Made by a program: the position numbers and the translations under genes. The notes beneath the pieces were generated by a model, which was given only the letters and a program-made list of their open reading frames with translations, searched no databases and was not told the DNA's origin. Shown one piece after another: positions 13,946-29,018 of a DNA stretch of 64,000 nt (positions are counted from its first letter, which is position 1; every line of letters starts with the position of its first letter). Origin of the DNA: an uncultured Latescibacterota bacterium (GTDB lineage: Bacteria; Latescibacterota; UBA2968); the NCBI GenBank assembly GCA_958295785.1, contig OY282377.1:4156896-4220895 (forward strand), read 5' to 3'.

Positions 13946-14065
13946 GTTTTGGGCCTACCTATCTGCCGACCTTACCTCCGTAGGTGGGCAGATAATGCGA
14001 GATTTCATCGGAAAGGCGTCACTGTATTTGCAAAAAAATCCCTTAGATCGAGGTTTGTAACATTC

Positions 14066-15427
14066 ATGATCGGACAGTTTAACATAAAAAATCTGGGTCC
14101 AATCAAGCAGGGATCGTTTGAGGTTAAACCGATCACGCTTTTTTGCGGACCCAATAATAGCGGTAAGACCTGGGCAATGTATTCGCTGTACTACTATTTG
14201 AATTTGCAACATGAGCCACTGCCACTTGGTTCCCTTACTGTTTTTAGAGATATATACGCTTCTCTATCAAAAAACAGCAGTGGTTACACTTTTCCGATAA
14301 AGGAGTGGCTGAAAAAAAACGGGAAAACATTTATTGAGCAGGTCAATCAAATCATTCACGCCAATCTGCCCGATTTGTTTAATACTCCGGTAGCATTATT
14401 CGAGTACTCTTATTTTTCTGTCCAGCCCGATTTGGACAGTCTTGCCGCTGAATTGACAAAAAAAGAGGTCAATACCTCGGTTTTTTTCGGAATGCGTTTC
14501 ACCAAAAAAGCGGGACATGATTCTATTCAACTCATAGCAGAATCAGCTCGACCTCCTTATGAGGTATTTGCAGACATGTTTGGTCGTATTTTGTTGGGAC
14601 TCGGTGAAGAGCGAGATGCTTTTTTGGTGCCGGCAGAACGCAATGGATTGCATTTATTTTTTCGGGAATTGAGCAACAAAAGAACCGCCCTGTTGCATCA
14701 TGCTTCTCGGGAAAATATCGATATCAGGGAACTTTTGAGCGATGTAATGAAATCCCCCTATGCCATGCCTATCGCCCATTACATTGACTGGCTCAATGAT
14801 ATGCAAAGCATCCAAAAACGCGGAACGGGCGATTTCCACCCGTATGCGGAAAAAATAAAAAAAGAATTGGTATCGGGTAGCTACACTGTGGAGGCGCGCA
14901 CTGGCGATATTACCTTTAGGCCCTATCAGAGAAAACGCGATGGCAAGTCAACTCAGCAGATGGGATTGCATTCGACTTCATCCACGGTAAAAAGTTTGTT
15001 CGGTCTTTGGTTTTATTTGGAAAACCAAGCAAAAAAAGGCGATGTGCTGATGATCGATGAGCCGGAACTGAACATACACCCCGAGAACCAACGCAAGATA
15101 GCGCGAGTTTTGGCCCTGTTGGTGAACGCTGGACTGAATGTTGTCGTTAGTACACACAGCGACTATATCGTGCGAGAGCTAAATTCTCTGATCATGTTGT
15201 CAGGTGACAAGGGCAAAGAACTCCGAGAAAAATATCGCTATCGAAAGGACGAGGTCTTGTCTCAAGAAAAAATTGGTGCTTATTTGTTTGACGATAAAAA
15301 AATTACGCCGTTTGAAATTACACCCGAAGATGGTATCTATGCCACGACTTTTGACGAGGTGATTAGGGATCTCAATGCCGTAAACGATGACATTTATTAT
15401 AGCTTGCAGGAAAGCAACAATGGGTAA
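14066..15427 (+). CDS. AAA (ABC/OLD-like) ATPase of a two-gene putative defence unit
   Basis: A 453-residue ATPase starting MIGQFNIKNLGPIKQGSF. Walker A is GPNNSGKT (28-35), Walker B is VLMIDEPELNIHPENQ (D331/E332), and STHSDYIVREL follows as the H-loop, the pattern of the AAA_15/AAA_21 SMC-like group. No TOPRIM domain is attached, so the effector is expected in trans. The downstream gene starts 8 nt before this stop and encodes a PD-(D/E)XK-like protein. The ATG at 14066 fits the family start; GAGG lies 12 nt upstream, further than usual. A role in phage or plasmid defence is inferred from architecture and neighbours. Confidence 0.8.
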   Translation: MIGQFNIKNLGPIKQGSFEVKPITLFCGPNNSGKTWAMYSLYYYLNLQHEPLPLGSLTVFRDIYASLSKNSSGYTFPIKEWLKKNGKTFIEQVNQIIHANLPDLFNTPVALFEYSYFSVQPDLDSLAAELTKKEVNTSVFFGMRFTKKAGHDSIQLIAESARPPYEVFADMFGRILLGLGEERDAFLVPAERNGLHLFFRELSNKRTALLHHASRENIDIRELLSDVMKSPYAMPIAHYIDWLNDMQSIQKRGTGDFHPYAEKIKKELVSGSYTVEARTGDITFRPYQRKRDGKSTQQMGLHSTSSTVKSLFGLWFYLENQAKKGDVLMIDEPELNIHPENQRKIARVLALLVNAGLNVVVSTHSDYIVRELNSLIMLSGDKGKELREKYRYRKDEVLSQEKIGAYLFDDKKITPFEITPEDGIYATTFDEVIRDLNAVNDDIYYSLQESNNG

Positions 15428-16013
15428 TGGGAAAACATTGTTTGATTTATTTCATAGCACAATAGAGAAAACATTTCATTTGGAAAGAGATGGGCAGCGA
15501 TGGATTTTGGCCGAAAGGGCGAAAAAAGGTACTCAACTGTCGATTATTGCTCCGAACAGATATTCACTGGGATTCACGCTGGACGAGGCGAACCTGAAGT
15601 CAGCGCAAAACTTAAAACCTATGCCTTTTATCTCGGGCAATCCCCCTGAACATATTGGAAAAATGTGCGATGCTATAGTGGTCTTGACATACAAGGGTAT
15701 GAGTTATCTGTTTTGCATAGAACAAAAGAGTGGGCATAAGGGAGATTACAAAAAACAACTGATGAATGGCGCGATTTTTTGTAACTGGCTTATGGATTTA
15801 TTCAAAGTTCACGGTCACTTTAACCAAAGGCCAATTTATCTTGGCCTACTCGTCTTCAAGCCTAGGGCAAAGGCAGTGAGAAAAGGTTCGACCTCACACA
15901 GAGAAGATAAACCTGAAGAATGTGGCCCCATCGGAGCTTTTGACAAGTGTTATAGAATGGTCAATAAAAATGAAATTCGGTTGGGAGAGTTGTGTAAATT
16001 GCATCGAGAGTAA
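15420..16013 (+). CDS. Putative PD-(D/E)XK nuclease partner of the AAA ATPase
   Basis: A 197-residue protein I do not recognise by family name. Residues 84-103 (CDAIV, then LFCIEQKSG) place D84 and E101-x-K103 on adjacent predicted strands, the spacing of a PD-(D/E)XK nuclease core, followed by a helix (DYKKQLMNGAIFCNWLM). The ATG at 15420 follows AGGA and overlaps the ATPase gene by 8 nt, so the pair is translationally coupled. I infer an ATPase-gated nuclease. The alternative is a purely structural or regulatory partner. Confidence 0.6.
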   Translation: MGNGKTLFDLFHSTIEKTFHLERDGQRWILAERAKKGTQLSIIAPNRYSLGFTLDEANLKSAQNLKPMPFISGNPPEHIGKMCDAIVVLTYKGMSYLFCIEQKSGHKGDYKKQLMNGAIFCNWLMDLFKVHGHFNQRPIYLGLLVFKPRAKAVRKGSTSHREDKPEECGPIGAFDKCYRMVNKNEIRLGELCKLHRE

Positions 16014-16156: not shown

Positions 16157-16822
16157 ATGGCACGGAAAAACAAAAAAGCGCGGCGAAAGCGAAGCGCGTT
16201 TCGAGAATTTGGGATCGCCATTTTTTTTGCCATTTTGATTCGAGGCACGCTGGTGCAAGCGTATCACATTCCGTCTGGATCGATGGAAAATACGCTGTTG
16301 GAAGGCGATTATGTGTTGGGCGATAAGTTGACGTTTGGCACGCAAATCCCGGACCGCGTGCCAATTTTGAATAACAAATTGCCCTCGTTTCGCGTGCCGG
16401 GGTTTTCAATCCCCCAGCCGGGCGATCTCGTCATTTTTGAATTTCCCCAAGATGCGTCGCGCGATTTTATCAAGCGGTGCATTGCGAATGAAGGGCAAAC
16501 CGTGGAAATCAAAAATAAAATTGTGTATGTAGATGGCAAGCGATTTGAGAATCCAAAAGGGGTGAAGTACGAAGACCCCACAGTGCTGGGCAAACGGGAT
16601 GGCCCGCGCGACAACTACGGCCCGCGCACAGTGCCGCCCGGGCACATTTTTGTAATGGGCGACAACCGCGACAGCAGTTACGACAGCCGGTTTTGGGGGA
16701 TGGTGCCAATCGAGAAAGTCAAGGCACACCCCGTATTTATTTATTTTTCCTGGAACAGCCAAGAGCCGTTGTGGAATATTTTTACAAAAATTCGCTGGGG
16801 CAGGCTGGGGCTTTTAGATTGA
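16157..16822 (+). CDS. lepB: Signal peptidase I
   Basis: A 221-residue inner-membrane serine protease that removes signal peptides. A basic N-terminus is followed by one transmembrane helix (FGIAIFFAILIRG), then box B IPSGSMENTL with nucleophile S42, box D FIKRCIANEGQ with general base K106, and box E MGDNRDSSYDSR. The short length and single anchor match Gram-negative candidate-phylum LepB proteins. It is monocistronic as far as can be seen. Confidence 0.95.
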   Translation: MARKNKKARRKRSAFREFGIAIFFAILIRGTLVQAYHIPSGSMENTLLEGDYVLGDKLTFGTQIPDRVPILNNKLPSFRVPGFSIPQPGDLVIFEFPQDASRDFIKRCIANEGQTVEIKNKIVYVDGKRFENPKGVKYEDPTVLGKRDGPRDNYGPRTVPPGHIFVMGDNRDSSYDSRFWGMVPIEKVKAHPVFIYFSWNSQEPLWNIFTKIRWGRLGLLD

Positions 16823-16915: not shown

Positions 16916-19828
16916 ATGATGCAGCGAAATGGGTATCTGAACAAAAGAATCGAGGAAAAAAGATCGACAACAGGGGCTTACTTCCTTTTTTTTCTGGCCG
17001 CTGTTTTTTGTTTTTTGCCCGTGAGCCCAGGCCGGGCCGCAGAGGTGGTGTTGCTCTACTCGGGGGATACGCAGAGTTTTTTGGAAGTGTGTGGCTGCGC
17101 GGACAAGCAACTCGGCGGCGTTGCGCGGCGGGCGACGATTGTGAAGGATTTGAGGCGGTCGTATCCCCACGCGCTGTTGTTGGACGCAGGCGGTCTATTT
17201 GCCGGCGATACGGTCTTGGATCAGTTGCGTTGCAAAATCCACCTGAACGCGATGAAGGCCATGCGCTACGATGTCGCCAATGCGGGGGTGGGCGAGTTGC
17301 GCTTTGGGCAGGCGTTTTTTGAAACCATGCGCGATTCGGGAGGCATACCTTTTGCGAGTGCAAATTTGAGGGTCAATGGCGTGCAGATGGGCGCGGAAAC
17401 GCGAATTTTGGATGCGGGCGGTGTGCGCGTGGGCGTGGTGGGGGTGGCGGGCGAACGAAAGATTGAAGCGCACGACACGGGCATGGGAACGGCGCGTTTG
17501 CACCTGCCCGATGGCGTGGGTTTCGCGCGCGATGGCATTGAAGCAGCGGTTGCAAAGGTGCATCGCACGGTTGATCTCGTGGTGGTGTTGAGCGATTTGG
17601 ACCGCGAGGCAGAACGCGATCTCATCCGGCAGGTCGCGGATATAGATGTGGTGATCAGCACGCGGTCACGCGAGACGACGCGGCGGGTTGGCAACGCGCT
17701 GGCACTGGGGACACAGCCGCAGGGCAAGGCAATAGGACAGGCGATATTGACTGTGGAAAATGGGCGTGTGACAGCAGAACGGGTCACGTCCATCCCGATC
17801 TCGGAATCCATTGCCGAAGACCGCGCGGTAAAACAACTCGTGGATGGATTTTACAATCGGGTGCAACAAAGCGCGGCATTGCAACAGACCGCACGCCCGA
17901 GGTTTGCTGGATTCGCATTGGAAGATCAACTCGCCATGGGCCGCAATCGCTATGTGGGCGCAGAGACGTGCGCCAGTTGCCACACCGCAGAGGCCGCAGA
18001 CTGGAATCAGTCGCATCACGCAGGGGCATTTAACCGGCTGTTGCAACAGCAAAAACACTATCAGCCCGATTGCGTGACGTGCCATACCACCGGGTTTGGC
18101 TATCCGACGGGATTTCGGATTGGCAAAGATGTGCTGACCCATGTGCAGTGCGAAGTGTGCCACGGGCCGGGAGAGCGACATGCGCGCCGGCCCGAAGTGC
18201 AAAATATCCGCCGCGTGCCGCCGGCCGAATTGTGCCAACGCTGCCACGATGCCGATCAGACGCCCGATTTTGACGCCCGATTTGCCCTTATGCTGGCCGA
18301 GGTGAACCACACCGGGCACAGTTCTCCGCACGTCGATACGCATGCCGAGCACGGGGAACTCGGGCGAGATGACCGGCCGCGAGTCGAGTTGTTCGTCATG
18401 GCCGATTGCCCTTACGGCATCCGCGCAGAACAAACTTTGGGGCCTCTGTTCCACAACCTGAGAGATCAGATCGATTTTCAGCTATACTTTATCGCAGAAG
18501 AAGCCGAAGAAGGCGAGGCCAACGCAACACCTGCCCCGGTCAGACAAACGCCGTCAGGCCCCGGCTGTCAGGCGACGACCGCGACGGGGACTGGGCGCTT
18601 TCGCAGTTTGCACGGCGACATAGAAGTGGCCGAGGGCATTCGGCAAACCGTTGTGATGTCCCTGTATCCCGACCGGTTCTGGGATTATATTTTGTGCCGC
18701 AACCGCGCGGGGATTGCGACCGATTGGCGCGGTTGTGCCACGCAGGTAAAAATGGATGCCGACAAAATTGCCGCGTTGACCGAAAGTGCCGAAGGCGAGG
18801 AATTGTTTGCCAAAAATATTCGCCGCGCCAATGTGTTGGGGGTTCAAGCGTCGCCCACCCTGCGCGTCAATGGTCGCTATGTCGATGCGGCTTTTGATGC
18901 GAATGCCGTGACCCAAGTGCTCTGTCGCAATGGCGAGGCACTGCCTTTTTGCGCCGATGTTCCCGAGTGCCGCACGGACATGGATTGCGTTCAGCCGGAC
19001 AAAGTGGGGGTATGTCGCGCAGGTGGAACGCCCAACGCGCACTGCGAATTTCGCGATCCCGTTTCTTTTCAGGCGACGATTCTCAACGACGCGACTTGTG
19101 AGGTGTGCGACACGTATGCGCTTGTTCGATCCACCCTGTCCCTGTTTCCCGGCGCGGCGTTTCAAACCGTGGATGTGAACGGTTGGACAGGGCAAAACCT
19201 GATCGCGCGCTATGGCCTAGACCGAGTGCCGTCGGCCGTGCTGATGGAGGGCTTTGAAAAGACGGCCCGTTTTGGGCAATACGCCCACCTCGTGCAGCGC
19301 GTTGGCGATCAGTTTGTGCCCTCTGTGCGGTTGACCCCGGTGACGCGGCTTTTGCACGGCCGGGATTTGACGGGTATGGATCTGTTTTTGGATGTGGAAT
19401 CGCGCTCGTCTTTGGAAATCGCCAAACGCCTGTTGGACTGGGTCAAACAAGTCGATGCGCCTGCGCGGTTGCGCTTGCACTTTGCGGGCGATAGCGAGCA
19501 AAACGCGCTGTTTCGACAGGTACAACAGGTCGCGCCAAACCGAGTCGCCGATGTGTTGTTGTGCCATTATCAAAAGCGGGCTTCTGGCACTTCCTCTGCG
19601 GCGGACTGCTTAAAACAGGCGGGCATTGCCGCGCAGGGGCAAAATGATCGAGCAGCCGTTCTCGCCGCGGCGCGGGCACTCGGCGTGTCGTCTATCGTGC
19701 CCGCAGTGGTGATCGATGGTCGTTTTGTGGTGCAAGCCAATGGCCTAAAGCAAGTGGAAGCGGTCTTTTACACCCTGCATCCCGAATTGGTTCAGCGCGA
19801 CAGGAATTTGTTATCCGACACCAACTGA
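16916..19828 (+). CDS. Metallophosphatase-like / tetraheme cytochrome c / thioredoxin-like fusion
   Basis: A 970-residue exported protein (signal peptide ending near residue 41). Residues 42-330 resemble the UshA/5'-nucleotidase metallophosphatase domain in the variant with VCGCADKQLGGVARR. Four heme c sites follow: CASCH (352), CVTCH (386), CEVCH (412) and CQRCH (440), in a cytochrome c554-like layout. Next comes a DsbA/thioredoxin-like domain with CPYG (498), a second with CEVC (728), and a C-terminal thioredoxin-like part with SIVPAVVIDGRF. It is likely a periplasmic redox protein; phosphatase activity is doubtful because metal ligands are not all recognisable. It is followed at 18 bp by a lipoprotein gene. 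Confidence 0.8.
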   Translation: MMQRNGYLNKRIEEKRSTTGAYFLFFLAAVFCFLPVSPGRAAEVVLLYSGDTQSFLEVCGCADKQLGGVARRATIVKDLRRSYPHALLLDAGGLFAGDTVLDQLRCKIHLNAMKAMRYDVANAGVGELRFGQAFFETMRDSGGIPFASANLRVNGVQMGAETRILDAGGVRVGVVGVAGERKIEAHDTGMGTARLHLPDGVGFARDGIEAAVAKVHRTVDLVVVLSDLDREAERDLIRQVADIDVVISTRSRETTRRVGNALALGTQPQGKAIGQAILTVENGRVTAERVTSIPISESIAEDRAVKQLVDGFYNRVQQSAALQQTARPRFAGFALEDQLAMGRNRYVGAETCASCHTAEAADWNQSHHAGAFNRLLQQQKHYQPDCVTCHTTGFGYPTGFRIGKDVLTHVQCEVCHGPGERHARRPEVQNIRRVPPAELCQRCHDADQTPDFDARFALMLAEVNHTGHSSPHVDTHAEHGELGRDDRPRVELFVMADCPYGIRAEQTLGPLFHNLRDQIDFQLYFIAEEAEEGEANATPAPVRQTPSGPGCQATTATGTGRFRSLHGDIEVAEGIRQTVVMSLYPDRFWDYILCRNRAGIATDWRGCATQVKMDADKIAALTESAEGEELFAKNIRRANVLGVQASPTLRVNGRYVDAAFDANAVTQVLCRNGEALPFCADVPECRTDMDCVQPDKVGVCRAGGTPNAHCEFRDPVSFQATILNDATCEVCDTYALVRSTLSLFPGAAFQTVDVNGWTGQNLIARYGLDRVPSAVLMEGFEKTARFGQYAHLVQRVGDQFVPSVRLTPVTRLLHGRDLTGMDLFLDVESRSSLEIAKRLLDWVKQVDAPARLRLHFAGDSEQNALFRQVQQVAPNRVADVLLCHYQKRASGTSSAADCLKQAGIAAQGQNDRAAVLAAARALGVSSIVPAVVIDGRFVVQANGLKQVEAVFYTLHPELVQRDRNLLSDTN

Positions 19829-19846: not shown

Positions 19847-20476
19847 ATGACTACCTTGAAGAGAATCAGATTCCGCCCACTGTTTCGCGCTTTCGCGCTG
19901 TGTGGCCTGTTGGCGGCTTTGGGTTGTCAGCCGATTCCCACAGGCCCTACCGATGATGGGGAGGGCGTCAGCGGACTTTCGTATGTCAACGAACCGTGGG
20001 GGTTTCAAATCAGTCGTCCGGATACCCTGTGGGGGATTCAGGTCTCAACGGATAACCTCAACCGAGATATCAATGGTTTGGCACCTGTGTCAGTGCGAAT
20101 TTCCAGCCCTATACCGTCAGAGTTATCAGGTGAATTTCGCCCTCATTTTCGCCTGTCTCCGCGGGCACTGCGCGAGATTACGACCTTGGATTCGCTCGTT
20201 GTGAATTTTGAAGAGCAGAGTTTGAAGCCCGCGTTTGATCAATATCGGGTCATTGGCGAAAAACAGCGCGTGCAACTCAAGGGCGGTGAGGCGATGCTGT
20301 GGGAATTTCGCTATTCTCAACTGGAACGACCCGGACCATATCCCGGCACGCGCTTTCTGACCGCCGTGGCCCTCCACAATCAGGTGGGGTTTTTTATGAT
20401 CGGCAATGGCAGCCGAGATGCCGGCTATCCCGCAGAGGCATATCGGCAAATCGTCACCAGTTTGGAATTTCGATAA
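19847..20476 (+). CDS. Lipoprotein of unknown function
   Basis: A 209-residue protein with a type II signal peptide and lipobox LAALGC (lipidated Cys at 27). The mature part (YVNEPWGFQISRPD, then later FLTAVALHNQVGFFMIGN) resembles the PsbP/Mog1-like fold of small secreted proteins that start with a G-F-Q/S-I strand. AGGA lies 7 nt before the ATG. Its 18-bp distance from the cytochrome fusion suggests co-transcription. Function is not known. Confidence 0.75.
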   Translation: MTTLKRIRFRPLFRAFALCGLLAALGCQPIPTGPTDDGEGVSGLSYVNEPWGFQISRPDTLWGIQVSTDNLNRDINGLAPVSVRISSPIPSELSGEFRPHFRLSPRALREITTLDSLVVNFEEQSLKPAFDQYRVIGEKQRVQLKGGEAMLWEFRYSQLERPGPYPGTRFLTAVALHNQVGFFMIGNGSRDAGYPAEAYRQIVTSLEFR

Positions 20477-21079: not shown

Positions 21080-21255
21080 GGATCGCTTGCTGGCAACATA
21101 GCGCATCATATTGATCGGTCGGCACAGTCAAAGCTCATTCCGGTTTTTATGACCGCACGTCTGAGTGCCTAAAACAATTTCAAAATACACGACAAAAAGC
21201 GCGATTCGCAGGGGCGGCACCCCCGTGCTTGCCCGAAACAGTGAAGGAGTTTTTC

Positions 21256-23544
21256 ATGAGATTGTGGTATGACGAGCCAGCGGAAAATTGGAATCACGCA
21301 TTGCCGGTGGGGTGTGGGAAACTCGGCGCGATGGTGTTTGGGGGCGTGCAGAAAGAGCGCGTTCAGATGAATGAAGATTCGATTTGGGCGGGGCCGCCAG
21401 TGCCCAAAGCACAAGCCGGGGCGCGGGCCGTGGTTGATCGGGCGCGTCAATTGATCTTTGACGGGCAATACGCCGAAGCGCAGGAACTGATGCAAGAACA
21501 GGTGATGGGGGAACGCATTGTCCCGCGCAGCTATCAGCCCTTGGGCGATTTGTCAATCGCGCAAGACCGGGTGGATTCACCCACCGATTATTGCCGTGAA
21601 CTCTCGCTCACCTCTGCAATTGCAACCACGCGATGGGTCGCCGGTGGAATCGCGTTTCAGCGCGAGGTCTTCGCCACGGCGGTCGATGGGGCCATTGTAT
21701 GTCGGATTGAGGCGGATCGGGCAGGTGCCATATCGTGCCGGGTTGCGTTTCACCGAAAGGAAAATGCACAGTGGTCGAGCGCGGGCGAGGATGCGTTGGC
21801 AATAACCGGACGCGCGGGGCATGGCGCAACACATGCTGGCGTGAAATTTTATGCAGGCATTCGGGCGGTTGCGGAAAACGGGTGCGTTCAGTGTGAAAGC
21901 GATACGCTCATCATCACGGATGCAGACGCGGTTACGATTGTCGTTTGCGCGGGTACGGACTACAATTTCGATCAGCCAGAAATGCCTTTGAAACGCGACT
22001 TGCGCCCTTTGGTCATGGAACAGGTCAAGGCGTGTTGTGCGCGACCATATCCCGATGTCAAGCGCGATCACATGCGCGATCACGCGCAGTACTTTGATCG
22101 GTGCGCGTTTTCCCTCGGCGCGGACAACGATGCCGATGTGCCAACGGATCGCCGGTTGGCCGAGTTCGCGCAAACCTCCGACCCCGCACTCGTCGCGCTC
22201 TACTTTCACTTTGCGCGGTATTTGACGATCTGTTGTTCGCGGCCGGGCAGCCTGTGCGCCAATTTGCAGGGGATTTGGAATGGGCAATACGAGGCGCCGT
22301 GGAACAGCGATTACCACATCAACATCAATATCCAGATGATTTACTGGCTCGCCGAGTTGGTCGGCTTGCCCGAATGTCACAAACCGTTTTTGGACTTTGC
22401 GGATGCCTTGCGCGACAATGCGCGCCAAACCGCGCGGGACGTGTATGGGTGCAGGGGAACGGCCGCGCATCACACGACAGATGTGTGGCGTTTTACCGAT
22501 CCCTTTGGGAAGGTGCAATACAGCATGTGGCCGATGGGCTGCGGGTGGAACAGCCGGCATTTTGTGGAGCACTGCGATTTTAATGGTTCAAAAGCCTTTT
22601 TGCGCGATTCGGCTTGGCCGGTTTTGCGAGATGCCGCGCTGTTTTTTCTCGATTGGTTGGCAGAAGATCCCCACGCGGGCAAACTCGTTTCCGGGCCGTC
22701 GTCTTCGCCCGAGAATCGCTTTCTCGCGCCGCGCACGGGCGAGGTGTGCAACCTCGTGATGGGGCCGAGCATGGATCAGCAGATTATTTGGGAGACGTTC
22801 ACAAATTGTCTGCGTTGTGCCGAGCTTCTCGGCCTTGACGATCCCGTTATCAAAAAAATAAAAAGCGCGTTGTCGCGCCTTGCCGAACCCCAAATCGGTT
22901 CGGATGGTCGCCTGATGGAATGGCCCGAAGAATTTGACGAGCCAGAGCCAGGGCATCGGCATATTTCACATATTTACGGCGTGTATCCCGGTTTTCAATT
23001 TGTCGCGCGTCCCGATTTTTTGGCCGCTGCGCGCAAGAGCATTGAACACCGCCTCGCGCACGGGGGCGGGCACACGGGTTGGAGCCGGGCGTGGTTGATC
23101 AATGTGTGGGCGCGTCTCAAAGATGCAAACAATGCGTGGGAAGATGTGCGCCAGTTGTTGATTCGCTCGACCCTGCCCAATCTGTTTGACAACCATCCGC
23201 CTTTTCAGATGGACGGCAACATGGGCGGGGCCGCAGGCATTGTGGAGATGGTGTTGCAAAGCCACCACTGCGCTGTCGAATTGTTTCCCGCATTGCCAGA
23301 CGCATGGGCAGAAGGCCGTGCAAAAGGGCTGCGCGCACGGGGCGGTTTTGTCGTGGATTTGCAGTGGAAAGACGAAAAAAAAACCGCGCACATTGTCTCG
23401 CGGCTGGGCAATCCCATTCGGCTGTTGTACGATGGGTCAATGCGCGTTGTCAATGCAGACGATCACGCGCTTATCGCAGAAGGGCGGGACGAGGTGGTTT
23501 TTCAAATCGAGAGAGGAAAATGCTGCGAGATTGCGCTGGGTTGA
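21256..23544 (+). CDS. GH95-family alpha-L-fucosidase/galactosidase
   Basis: A 762-residue glycoside hydrolase. The N-terminal domain starts with the family motif [21 protein letters not shown] and [11 protein letters not shown]. The (alpha/alpha)6 catalytic domain shows [25 protein letters not shown], typical of GH95, and the C-terminal part has [16 protein letters not shown]. Family members are inverting exo-hydrolases of alpha-1,2-L-fucosides or L-galactosides. No signal peptide is present, so it is cytoplasmic or released otherwise. The ATG at 21256 follows GGAG by about 6 nt. Confidence 0.92.
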
Positions 23545-25523: not shown

Positions 25524-25745
25524 AGATGCGCTCCTTCAAGAGTGTGTTGTGGAACAAAATGCGCGACGCTTACAACTATAGAACTTAATGCCGTGATTGG
25601 TCAAGCGCAAAGTAGTTGCTGTGCATTGCGCGCGGTTTAAGGATATGCAACTTTCTTTTTCTTCACGCATTTAATAACTGATGCTACGCAAACGCCACAA
25701 ATGGTCTTCAATGATCATCGCTATCCAACCCAAAAGGAGGTTACC

Positions 25746-28700
25746 ATGAAGCATTGTTTCGCGCCGGTCAAGCCAATCGCAGGACTTATGTTCGTCCTTA
25801 TTTTGGGCTTATGCGTTTCAACCTCTGCGTTCGCCCAAGAGTATTTTGGCAAAAACAAGGTCAATTACAGCCAATACGCTTGGCATTATATCGACAGCGA
25901 ACACTTCACGATCTACTTTGACAAGGGGTCGTTGGGCCTGGCCGAGTTTGTCGCCAAAGAGGCGGAGCGGTCTTTAGTCCACATTGAAAAAACCCTCAAA
26001 TACACCCTGAAAGAACGCTATCCCATCGTGATTTACAATTCGCACAATGGATTTTCCGTGTCCAATATCACCAATGCTGAACAGTCTGAGTTTACGGGGG
26101 GGTTCACCGAGTTTGCACAAGGTCGCGTGGTCATTCCCTTTACCGGGTCTTATGAGGATTTGCAGCACGTCATTCACCACGAGTTGGTTCACGCGGTTAC
26201 GATAGAGTTGTGGACCGGCGGCGGCTGGTTGGGGTCTTTGGTTACGCAAACATCCACGTTGCCCCCGCTGTGGATTGCCGAGGGCATTGCCGAATACGTA
26301 TCGCGCTATGGCTGGCACAAAGAGCACGACAATTTTATGCGCGATGCCACCATTACCGGCTATGTGCCGACCATTGAAATGATGTCGATGAGTTATTTTG
26401 CTTACCCCGGGGGCAACTCGGTTTTTTATATGATAGAACAGGAATACGGCAAGGACAAGGTGGCGTCTTTTATTTCGTCTTTCCGCACGGCCAAAACCCC
26501 CGACAAAGCACTCAAAGCGTCTTTGGGATTTGGGATGAAGGAATTGGAAGAGAAATATCAACTGTGGCTCAAGCGGCAATACTGGAACGAGATCAACCTG
26601 CGCCACACGCCCGCCGAGATGGCCAAAAATTTGACAGAACGCGAAGATGAGCCTCCGTCGTACAATCTGGCTGCCGCGCTCTCGCCGCAAGGCGACAAGG
26701 TCGCGTATTTGACCAACCGAAATGGCACGTTTGATATTTATCTCATGTCGGCAATTGACGGCAAGGACCTAGGGCGGTTGGTCGAGGGCCAAAAGTCGTC
26801 CGATTTTGAATCGATGTTCGTTTTGCGGCCCGGCTTGACGTGGTCGCCGGATGGCAGGCACATTGCGTTTGCCGCCAAATCGAATAACAAAAATACCCTG
26901 TACATTCTCGACGTAAAAAAGAAACAGATTCGCAAGCGGTTTAAGTTTGACCTCGACGGGCTGTTTGAACCGGCGTGGTCGCCCAATGGAGAAAAAATTG
27001 CCGTTGCGGGAATCAAAGATGGCTGGTCCGATATCTACGTGATCGATCTCAATGACGAGTCGCTCACCCGCCTGACCAATGACCCCTACGACGAGCGGCA
27101 CTTGGATTGGTCGCCCGATGGCGCGTGGATCGCCGTGAGCTCTGACCGCCCCGATACCACATTGGCATTTCGCGGCGGGAAGGATTTTGCTTTCGGGCAA
27201 TACGACATCTTTTTGGTGCGCGCCGATGGGTCAGAAATGCGCCGCATTGTCGCGTATGAAGACGCCGAGGAATCGCATCCGGTGTGGGGGGCAGACAGCA
27301 AACACCTCGCCTTTGTCTCCGACCACACGGGGGTGGGCAATATTTATATCGCAACCGTAGATGGCACACAGGAGATCTATCCCATCACCAATTTGCTATC
27401 CGGGGCGCAATACCTCGATTGGTCAGCCGATGGCAAAAAGATCGCGTTCAATGCCTTTCACAAGGGCACCCTGGATGTGTTTGTGATGCGCGACCCGCTC
27501 GTACAAAAAAAAGAAATGGCGGATTTGCCGCGCACCCGTTTTGTCAAGCGACTCGCAGGCGAAGACAAAAAGATGTTTGTCGAGTTGCAAAAGGAAAAAT
27601 ACGCATCTCGCGATACCGCTGAAGCAGAAGCCGATAGCGCGGTGGATTCGACCAAGCGAGAACCCACAAAAAAGGTGGCGCAGTGGATCGCGGATCAAGA
27701 AGCCCTCGCGGCGGCTGATGCTGATGCAGACAGCACCGAACACGCGACCACCCATCCGGTCGCAGGCAGCCCGGACATGGCCGATTCCGGGGTCAAAGAC
27801 TGGGGCGAGCGGGAATTTCAGGTGAAGAAGTACAAGTTGAAATTTAAGCCCGAACTGTTCGGTGCCCAGGCGGGGTTTAACACGTTCTACGGCGTGAGCA
27901 GTCTTATCATGTTGTCGATGAGCGATGTGATGGGCGATCACCGCGCCACATTGTTGACGAGTGTGAGTTTTTCGCTCAAAGACAGCAATTTTCTGCTCAG
28001 TTATGCCTATTTGAAGCATCGCACGGATTACGGCGCGCAACTTTTTCACACGCGCTCCTATTTCTTTGCCAATATCGGCAATGGAATCGATCTGTACGCC
28101 GACCGATATTACGGGGTTGCCGGGGGGCTTGAGCGGCCGTTTAATCGATTCTCGCGCTTGGAGTTCAATGCGCGCTTTGTCGCTGTTGATCGCGAGTTGT
28201 TGGGGCAAATAGAGAATACGCCATTTTTTACTCCGGGCTTTCGAGGCATTGGGCGGGGGTTCACGAGCGAATTGATCGACAGGAGTCGGGCGGCCATTGG
28301 CGAAGTGGCTCTGGTGGGCGATAGCGCGCTTTACAGTCTGTTTGGCGCCGCAGACGGGCATCGCTACCGGTTGGGATTTGAAGGGTCTGGTTTGGGTATG
28401 AAATTTGCCACGTTTCGACTGGATTATCGCAAATATATTCGCCTGTTAAACGAATATACATTTGCCCTTCGAATGTCGGGCGGGACGAGTTATGGCCCAA
28501 ACAGCACCGTGTTTTTTGTCGGCGGTGTGAACAATCCGATCAATCCCACGTTTTCAACCATTGCCAATGTGAATCAGAGTCGCATATTTTTCTCCTCTTA
28601 TGCCTGGCCCTTGCGCGGGGCCTCCCTGCTCGAAATGGCGGGCGATTCTTATGTGCTGGGCAATATCGCGTTCCGGTTCCCGCTCATCCGGCAATTGGCT

Positions 28701-29018
28701 ATGGGCTGGCCCTTACCATTTTTCTTTCAAAATGTACAGGGGGAATTGTTCTTTGACATCGGCGGGGCTTTTGAGCGCGCCGATTGGCGAAGTGGATGGG
28801 TGGCCCGCGATGGCGGGTTCCAACTCAACACGCCGCAAAACTACCGGAAGCGGGAAATCGCAAAATCAAAACCGCAACTTGCCGCTGGGTATGGCTTTGG
28901 CGTGCGCGTGAATCTGGGCTATTTCCTGTTCCGCTACGATCTGGCCTGGCCCACAGACCTCGCGCAAACCTATCACCCGCATCAGTATTTCTCGATTGAT
29001 TTCACGGGGTTGTTTTAA
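25746..29018 (+). CDS. Peptidase MA-like metallopeptidase / TolB beta-propeller / outer-membrane barrel protein
   Basis: A 1090-residue exported protein (signal ending STSAFAQ). Residues about 35-290 form a gluzincin peptidase MA-like domain with H145-E-L-V-H149 and the downstream WIAEGIAEYV glutamate segment. Residues 300-620 hold PD40/TolB propeller repeats (LTWSPDGRHIAFA, PAWSPNGEKIAVA and similar). The C-terminal ~350 residues alternate aromatic strands and end in a YFSIDFTGLF barrel signature, a Bac_surface_Ag-like outer-membrane barrel. It may clip or remodel surface proteins. AAGGAGG lies 6 nt before the ATG, and a terminator lies downstream at 29145. Confidence 0.85.
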   Translation: MKHCFAPVKPIAGLMFVLILGLCVSTSAFAQEYFGKNKVNYSQYAWHYIDSEHFTIYFDKGSLGLAEFVAKEAERSLVHIEKTLKYTLKERYPIVIYNSHNGFSVSNITNAEQSEFTGGFTEFAQGRVVIPFTGSYEDLQHVIHHELVHAVTIELWTGGGWLGSLVTQTSTLPPLWIAEGIAEYVSRYGWHKEHDNFMRDATITGYVPTIEMMSMSYFAYPGGNSVFYMIEQEYGKDKVASFISSFRTAKTPDKALKASLGFGMKELEEKYQLWLKRQYWNEINLRHTPAEMAKNLTEREDEPPSYNLAAALSPQGDKVAYLTNRNGTFDIYLMSAIDGKDLGRLVEGQKSSDFESMFVLRPGLTWSPDGRHIAFAAKSNNKNTLYILDVKKKQIRKRFKFDLDGLFEPAWSPNGEKIAVAGIKDGWSDIYVIDLNDESLTRLTNDPYDERHLDWSPDGAWIAVSSDRPDTTLAFRGGKDFAFGQYDIFLVRADGSEMRRIVAYEDAEESHPVWGADSKHLAFVSDHTGVGNIYIATVDGTQEIYPITNLLSGAQYLDWSADGKKIAFNAFHKGTLDVFVMRDPLVQKKEMADLPRTRFVKRLAGEDKKMFVELQKEKYASRDTAEAEADSAVDSTKREPTKKVAQWIADQEALAAADADADSTEHATTHPVAGSPDMADSGVKDWGEREFQVKKYKLKFKPELFGAQAGFNTFYGVSSLIMLSMSDVMGDHRATLLTSVSFSLKDSNFLLSYAYLKHRTDYGAQLFHTRSYFFANIGNGIDLYADRYYGVAGGLERPFNRFSRLEFNARFVAVDRELLGQIENTPFFTPGFRGIGRGFTSELIDRSRAAIGEVALVGDSALYSLFGAADGHRYRLGFEGSGLGMKFATFRLDYRKYIRLLNEYTFALRMSGGTSYGPNSTVFFVGGVNNPINPTFSTIANVNQSRIFFSSYAWPLRGASLLEMAGDSYVLGNIAFRFPLIRQLAMGWPLPFFFQNVQGELFFDIGGAFERADWRSGWVARDGGFQLNTPQNYRKREIAKSKPQLAAGYGFGVRVNLGYFLFRYDLAWPTDLAQTYHPHQYFSIDFTGLF

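What the first reader, a model, noticed from the sequence alone, without database searches (positions are those of the whole stretch)
16916..19828. Metallophosphatase, tetraheme cytochrome and several thioredoxin folds in one chain
One exported protein joins a UshA-like domain, four CxxCH hemes, a CPYG DsbA-like domain, a CEVC domain and a third thioredoxin-like part. UshA-like plus multiheme c architectures are known; the attached series of thiol-redox domains is unusual and suggests heme-thiol electron transfer.
Basis: partly seen in the sequence, partly recalled or inferred. Interest (0 to 1): 0.6.

Follow-up and report, generated by a model that had tools for sequence, protein, structure and literature searches.

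The report
Heme protein with thioredoxin arms
A secreted bacterial protein joins a disabled phosphatase fold, four predicted hemes and three thioredoxin-like domains in one chain that is kept across many relatives, so it may be a single-molecule wire between protein thiols and hemes, but no electron transfer has been shown.

Summary
Window 16916-19828 (+) is one uninterrupted 970-aa exported protein in a closed Latescibacterota genome: signal peptide, UshA-like domain, tetraheme c554-like domain, GILT/DsbA-like domain (CPYG), six-Cys segment, thioredoxin domain (CEVC), and a third, degenerate GILT/DsbA-like domain without its Cys. It is not a local fusion: 19 of 47 genomes of the class carry it (11 of 11 in the genus), with all domains under purifying selection. 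The parts also occur apart. UshA plus four hemes is a known, often selenocysteine-containing family (NF041198, C-x-U). The thioredoxin array stands alone in many DPANN archaea and in five close relatives, at a locus where a sixth relative has the fused form. Poribacteria have UshA, four hemes and one DsbA domain; four genomes have UshA plus array without hemes. 'Metallophosphatase' holds for the fold only: 15 of 15 fusions examined lost at least four of six metal ligands plus the catalytic His, and 14 of 15 keep a C-x-C. Best reading: a periplasmic Cys/heme redox protein with disulfide-exchange arms. Heme-thiol transfer is inferred, not shown. Verdict: new variant of a known kind.

The parts
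16916..17041 (+). Signal peptide-like N-terminus (residues 1-42, cleavage near GRA-A), predicted export
   Evidence: Sequence; predicted helix 19-32. No signal-peptide program was available.
17042..17905 (+). UshA-like (5'-nucleotidase/SoxB fold) catalytic-type domain, residues 43-330, metal ligands lost
   Evidence: NF041198; fold match Z 27-28 to CD73, T. thermophilus 5'-nucleotidase and SoxB over model residues about 42-330; ligand table
17090..17098 (+). C59-G-C61 motif, the position of C-x-U (selenocysteine) in relatives
   Evidence: First Cys in 44 of 44 rows, second Cys or U in 43 of 44
17948..18325 (+). Tetraheme cytochrome c554-like domain (residues 345-470); CxxCH at 17969-17983, 18071-18085, 18149-18163, 18233-18247
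   Evidence: PF13435 46 bits; CxxCH motifs and His 368, 381, 422, 465 invariant in 19 of 19 fusion rows
18365..18916 (+). Thioredoxin-like D1, GILT/DsbA-like, CPYG at 18407-18418 (C498), C551 at 18566-18568
   Evidence: C498 in 62 of 62 rows
18917..19057 (+). Six-Cys segment (C670, C679, C685, C691, C700, C710)
   Evidence: All six Cys invariant in 26 of 26 rows: 19 fusions and 7 other module carriers
19058..19360 (+). Thioredoxin-like D2 with CEVC at 19097-19108 (C728, C731)
   Evidence: PDO N-domain match E 9e-6; CxxC in 16 of 16 fusions
19361..19813 (+). Thioredoxin-like D3, degenerate GILT/DsbA-like copy without CPYG
   Evidence: hhalign with D1 98.6%; CPY absent in 16 of 16 fusions, present in 38 of 39 other arrays
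19847..20476 (+). 209-aa lipoprotein-like gene, conserved neighbour in the family; function unknown
   Evidence: Homologues downstream in the genus and in two more genera; no Pfam hit
16157..16822 (+). Signal peptidase I (LepB), conserved upstream neighbour in the genus and in G013
   Evidence: PF10502 139.9 bits

Best explanation
It is an exported redox protein made of three modules. (1) A 5'-nucleotidase-type fold that has lost its di-metal site and carries a C-x-C (C59/C61), the cysteine form of the C-x-selenocysteine motif of the UshA-like (seleno)protein family. (2) A four-heme c554-like domain with four invariant extra histidines, so probably bis-His hemes made for electron transfer rather than substrate binding. 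(3) An array GILT/DsbA-like (CPYG), six-Cys segment, thioredoxin (CEVC), degenerate GILT/DsbA-like, shared with a widespread stand-alone family. Most likely the C-x-C site oxidises or reduces a thiol or sulfur substrate and exchanges electrons with the hemes, which pass them to or from a periplasmic cytochrome, while the array binds the thiol/disulfide partner and presents or regenerates it (CEVC as dithiol site, CPYG as mono-Cys exchange site, third domain structural). SHOWN: architecture, conservation, loss of the metal ligands, Cys/Sec motif, modular history. INFERRED: heme attachment, bis-His ligation, periplasmic location, direction of electron flow, substrate, and any electron transfer between thiols and hemes.
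For: Domain matches; structure models and fold matches; D85, N117, H118, H220 and H243 of CD73 lost in 15 of 15 fusions examined, with C-x-C kept in 14 of 15 and U at the second position in 13 of 22 stand-alone UshA-heme relatives; fusion in 19 of 47 genomes of the class; dN/dS under 1 in every domain of 4 close pairs, lowest in the heme domain in 3 of the 4; cytochrome c assembly genes (3 matches) and DsbD present in the genome; Poribacteria also show UshA, four hemes and one DsbA domain in one chain.
Against: No measurement of redox activity. One fusion (L060) has C-x-F instead of C-x-C. The array keeps CxxC in five relatives where no heme part is attached, and four genomes carry UshA plus array without hemes, with the CxxC lost in the two that were aligned, so hemes and thiol sites are not strictly coupled. 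CPYG lacks a second Cys and the candidate partner C551 is missing in the two Poribacteria aligned and in 38 of 39 other arrays. The heme domain was modelled without heme and with low confidence, so no heme-to-Cys distance can be given.
Confidence: 0.45

Rival explanations
1. The array serves biogenesis rather than catalysis: it keeps or makes the CxxCH cysteines (its own or those of other apocytochromes) competent for heme attachment, like CcmG/ResA do, and was fused to a cytochrome client.
For: In family f2 the stand-alone array gene, and in one genome the full fusion, lies downstream of a heme cluster: in L057 Cytochrom_C_asm, CysG-like, HemA, HemC, HemD, FlgD-Ig, array, PCMT; L060 has the fusion in the same order where visible.
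Against: The array is common in DPANN archaea where no heme part is attached; that gene order is not kept in the window's genus or in f4; heme-cluster co-location may be chance.
Confidence: 0.17
2. The array is a binding device, not a redox device: tandem thioredoxin folds hold unfolded or partner proteins, as in UGGT or the plant vacuolar sorting receptor, and merely tether the UshA-heme enzyme to a target.
For: Weak Foldseek matches of the module to the UGGT folding-sensor region and to VSR1 (VSR1 Z 14.9); D3 has no active-site Cys, D1 has one.
Against: C498 is kept in 62 of 62 rows and CxxC in 16 of 16 fusions, and D2 is 98-99% identical in three close pairs of the genus, which a pure binder would not need.
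Confidence: 0.2
3. The UshA-like domain still works as a metal-dependent nucleotidase or thiosulfohydrolase (SoxB-like) and the rest is accessory.
For: Fold match Z 27-28 to CD73 and SoxB; SoxB NCBIfam E 5.6e-17.
Against: D85, N117, H220, H243 and the catalytic H118 lost in 15 of 15 fusions, H38 in 14 of 15; model range of the fold matches stops near residue 330, without the 5'-nucleotidase substrate domain; no Metallophos hit in Pfam.
Confidence: 0.04
4. The gene is a chance, recent or artefactual fusion.
For: Both halves occur as separate genes elsewhere.
Against: 19 of 47 genomes of the class, two of them single-contig, carry the same order at 36-72% identity; purifying selection in all domains.
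Confidence: 0.01

Closest known systems
UshA-like (seleno)protein, NF041198 (UshA_like_PCGU; COG0737 UshA-like selenoprotein with CxU)
   Same: UshA-type fold with C-x-C/U near the former metal site, followed by four CxxCH; 243 bits over both halves. Family listed as CxU selenoprotein in PMC13188914 and PMC2398784 (passages read).
   Different: Score below the curated cut-off (275); Cys instead of Sec; about 490 extra residues forming a thioredoxin array; the ligands D85, H220 and H243, kept in 12, 8 and 9 of 22 stand-alone relatives, are gone.
Stand-alone tandem GILT/DsbA - thioredoxin - GILT/DsbA proteins of DPANN archaea, Kuenenbacteria, UBP6 and Myxococcota
   Same: Same order of thioredoxin-like domains, mostly 18-27% identity.
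   Different: Not fused to hemes; 38 of 39 keep CPY in the third domain too, which all fusions have lost.
Rcas_1661 family thioredoxin-like (seleno)lipoprotein, NF041057 (DsbG-like, UxxC)
   Same: Matches 34 of 62 array members weakly.
   Different: No match of the window protein at E 0.001; the two scores seen are far below the cut-off.
SoxB thiosulfohydrolase / CD73 5'-nucleotidase
   Same: Fold of the N-terminal domain, Z 27-28.
   Different: Metal site absent; no substrate-binding second domain.
GILT and DsbA
   Same: Fold of D1, Z 18.0 (mouse GILT) and 15.8 (S. aureus DsbA).
   Different: CPYG instead of CxxC; part of an array fused to a cytochrome.

Membership tests
NF041198 UshA-like (seleno)protein | Score over the curated equivalog cut-off | tested here: not met
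   243.2 vs 275 bits; 0 of 64 genomes of the phylum had a match over it
NF041198 UshA-like (seleno)protein | C-x-U or C-x-C after the first strand | tested here: met
   C59-G-C61; 14 of 15 fusions C-x-C, one C-x-F
NF041198 UshA-like (seleno)protein | Four-heme C-terminal part | tested here: met
   Profile positions 353-517 matched by residues 291-453; four CxxCH
Metallophosphatase / 5'-nucleotidase | Fold of the catalytic domain | tested here: met
   Z 27-28 over about 260-290 residues
Metallophosphatase / 5'-nucleotidase | Di-metal ligands (CD73 D36, H38, D85, N117, H220, H243) and catalytic His118; CD73 numbers recalled | tested here: not met
   Window D, Q, G, V, D, R and G
Cytochrome c554 family (PF13435) | Score over the gathering cut-off and CxxCH motifs | tested here: met
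   46 vs 20.8 bits
c-type cytochrome | Covalently bound heme | not testable with these tools
   Motifs, four invariant extra His and assembly genes only
DsbA (PF01323) / GILT (PF03227) | Score over the gathering cut-off | tested here: not met
   DSBA 22.5 vs 25.6 in the whole protein and 24.3 in the module; GILT 20.0 vs 22.4; Thioredoxin_4 22.8 whole, 25.5 module vs 23.2
DsbA / GILT | Thioredoxin fold with inserted helical domain | tested here: met
   Model pLDDT 92.1; GILT Z 18.0
DsbA / GILT | CxxC active site in D1 | tested here: not met
   CPYG, single Cys

The most novel reading that the evidence does not exclude
The chain is a complete, cytochrome-coupled disulfide system: substrate thiols are oxidised by the thioredoxin arms, the arms are re-oxidised through the C-x-C pseudo-phosphatase site, and electrons leave through the four hemes to the respiratory chain instead of through DsbB or VKOR to quinone. 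In the window's genus no DsbB or VKOR was found in 11 of 11 genomes and this protein holds the only exported-looking DsbA-type domain found in the genome (the other match looks cytosolic). The link is not exclusive: 7 of 19 fusion genomes do have DsbB or VKOR, and 10 of 22 genomes without fusion or array lack both (Fisher p 0.35).
Probability: 0.13. Interest if true: 0.8.

Novelty: new variant of a known kind. Interest (0 to 1): 0.45.

Why it matters
The UshA-like selenoprotein with C-x-U is a predicted family; the passages read gave no tested function for it. A natural fusion that ties it to four hemes and to thiol-disulfide exchange domains is a strong hint that the family is a thiol or selenol redox enzyme talking to cytochromes, and it gives a single soluble protein with which to test that. 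If electrons do pass between thiols and hemes in one chain, it would be a route for disulfide chemistry that bypasses DsbB and VKOR.

Tried and rejected
Assembly artefact or private fusion: rejected by conservation in 19 of 47 genomes. Active metallophosphatase: rejected on ligands. Replacement for DsbB/VKOR as a general rule: 12 of 19 fusion genomes lack both, but so do 10 of 22 genomes without fusion or array (Fisher p 0.35). Strict coupling of hemes and CxxC: not supported, since the f2 array-only proteins keep CxxC without hemes. Order of gain or loss at the f2 locus: the tree unites fusions of families f1 and f2 and the array-only genes in one clade (100/99), but the forks among L060, L056 and the other four are open, so N-terminal loss in f2 is likely but unresolved. 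The first single-protein scan of named genomes found no relative; the second, by profile, found 254, of which the best 80 were kept, so the survey is not complete. Literature: three searches for such a fusion listed no paper whose title or abstract start describes it; NF041198 is named in one held paper only. No library of predicted cellular structures was on hand. Coordinates of the models were not available, so Cys-Cys and Cys-heme distances were not measured. Rows of the VIA second look on the module cover mostly the first domain; D2 and D3 were not searched alone. L054/L020/L031 (G014) is cut at a contig end and was left out of the ligand table.

Full report
Check of the observation. The ORF at 16916-19828 (+) is open over 970 codons and lies in a single-contig 5.66-Mb genome. 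The organism is a Latescibacterota: its genus includes G008, whose contig length equals that of OX638329.1 'uncultured Latescibacteria bacterium'. Pfam and NCBIfam give Cytochrome_C554 (46 bits, cut-off 20.8), UshA_like_PCGU NF041198 (243 bits, cut-off 275) and sub-threshold DSBA, Thioredoxin_4 and GILT hits (Thioredoxin_4 passes its cut-off when the module is scanned alone). The full-length model has mean pLDDT 79.6 (heme part mostly under 60, without heme); the C-terminal module alone 92.1, pTM 0.76.

Domain by domain. (i) UshA-like domain, 43-330: best matches are T. thermophilus 5'-nucleotidase, CD73 and SoxB at Z 27-28; only the catalytic domain of 5'-nucleotidases is present. Compared with CD73 (ligand numbers recalled) the window keeps D36 and has lost H38, D85, N117, H118, H220 and H243. 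Across 15 fusions D85, N117, H118, H220 and H243 are lost in 15 of 15; H38 is kept in one; D36 is kept in 13; C59 is kept in 15 and C61 in 14. Among 22 stand-alone UshA-heme relatives examined, the second position is U in 13 and C in 9, and D85, H220 and H243 are still present in 12, 8 and 9. The window genome encodes SelB (385.8 bits, over the cut-off), so the Cys form occurs in an organism that probably can use selenocysteine. (ii) Tetraheme domain: four CxxCH plus His 368, 381, 422, 465, all invariant in 19 of 19 fusion rows, a number that fits four bis-His hemes (inference). (iii) D1, 484-667: GILT/DsbA fold (GILT Z 18.0), CPYG; C498 in 62 of 62 rows. C551 in its insert is present in 16 of 16 fusions and 5 of 5 array-only Latescibacterota, absent in the two Poribacteria aligned and in 38 of 39 other arrays. 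(iv) Six-Cys segment, all six Cys invariant in 26 of 26 rows. (v) D2, CEVC, related to the N-domain of protein disulfide oxidoreductases (E 9e-6). (vi) D3, a degenerate copy of D1 (hhalign 98.6%): the CPY motif is absent in 16 of 16 fusions and 5 of 5 array-only Latescibacterota but present in 38 of 39 other arrays (the one miss, L100, lacks D3).

Conservation and spread. Among 100 genomes full-length matches occur in 10 of 10 other members of the genus (71-72% identity), G013 and G014 (52%, 51%; G014 truncated by its contig end), G020 (43%) and five g14 genomes (36-37%): with the window, 19 of the 47 genomes of the class (G000-G046). G015-G019 have the array alone (42-45%). G021 has UshA plus array without hemes, as do G097, G242 and G376 outside the class. 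In 386 genomes (cut-off 1e-20) the full fusion was seen only in the class, while UshA plus four hemes alone is spread over many families, often with one in-frame TGA. In the named collection a profile of the array gave 254 relatives, of which the best 80 were kept: 15 fusions, 5 array-only Latescibacterota, 3 Poribacteria with UshA, four hemes and one DsbA domain (623-638 aa), and 57 others, mostly DPANN archaea, none with a four-CxxCH domain (L084 has two CxxCH in a zinc-ribbon-like N-terminus). Pairwise dN/dS is about 0.05 to 0.40 in all six segments of four close pairs; D3 is the least conserved segment over longer distances.

History. In a tree of 49 array rows the 11 fusions of families f1 and f2 and the five array-only Latescibacterota form one clade (100/99); the five g14 fusions and the Poribacteria lie next to it with poor resolution. 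The fused gene of G020 (L060) and the array-only genes of L056-L059 and L061 sit at the same locus, downstream of HemD and FlgD-Ig genes and upstream of a PCMT gene (part of whose output was cut; families named for L057 and the FlgD-Ig gene of L060). Loss of the UshA-heme part in f2 is therefore likely, but the forks are open.

Neighbourhood. In family f1 the gene lies between lepB and a 209-aa lipoprotein-like gene (in G013 one more gene stands before the lipoprotein gene, and upstream of G014 nothing is held); in g14 between a GT87-like gene and a lipoprotein-like gene followed by a Peptidase_MA-PD40-Omp85 gene. No neighbour names the function. The genome has DsbD and three Cytochrom_C_asm matches and no VKOR or DsbB match. 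The only other DsbA-family match (L167) shows CSWC and no clear signal peptide. DsbB and VKOR are both absent in 12 of 19 fusion genomes, 5 of 5 array-only genomes, 0 of 1 heme-less fusion genome and 10 of 22 others, which is no significant link (Fisher p 0.35, fusion against others).

Mechanism. The lost metal site next to a conserved C-x-C/U, the electron-transfer-type hemes and the added thiol-exchange domains point to a thiol or selenol redox enzyme coupled to cytochromes. The direction of flow, the substrate and any thiol-heme step are inferred. Against a strict relay stand the array-only proteins, the heme-less fusions, the mono-Cys CPYG and the one C-x-F variant.

Known and new. The UshA-like selenoprotein is in print (PMC2398784 and PMC13188914, passages read). 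A fusion with a thioredoxin array did not appear in the three searches made (listings only). It is a new variant of a known kind, interesting because it makes a hypothesis for an uncharacterised selenoprotein family testable.

Noticed in passing
window 13949-16013: Two-gene cassette like the PD-T4-4 anti-phage system (A: 370 bits; B: E 1.7e-13), inserted between a Gfo/Idh/MocA gene and lepB; relatives L048, L051 and L053 have no such insert there.
   Followed up: partly
window 25701-29018; L062-L067: Peptidase_MA-PD40-Omp85 protein 6 kb downstream; a 26%-identical homologue lies closely downstream of the fusion gene in the distant g14 genomes, separated by a lipoprotein-like gene.
   Followed up: partly
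L047:855-3695 (G009): 946-aa protein with a long N-terminal part without Pfam match, then UshA-like CGC and four hemes: another fusion of the same family in a genus member.
   Followed up: no
L068-L127 (except L095-L097): Large family, not named by the libraries scanned, of tandem GILT/DsbA-Trx-GILT/DsbA proteins, mostly in DPANN archaea, some with acidic double-disulfide repeats as linkers.
   Followed up: partly
L040:2776-5127, L042:6632-9049, L142, L153: UshA-like C-x-C domain fused directly to the thioredoxin array without hemes; in the two aligned (L040, L042) the array lost the D2 CxxC.
   Followed up: partly
window 21229-23544: GH95-type glycosidase gene between the lipoprotein and esterase genes, absent at that place in relatives L048, L051 and L053.
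   Followed up: no
genus of the window (11 genomes): No DsbB or VKOR found in 11 of 11 genomes, although this exported protein alone holds many conserved Cys.
   Followed up: partly
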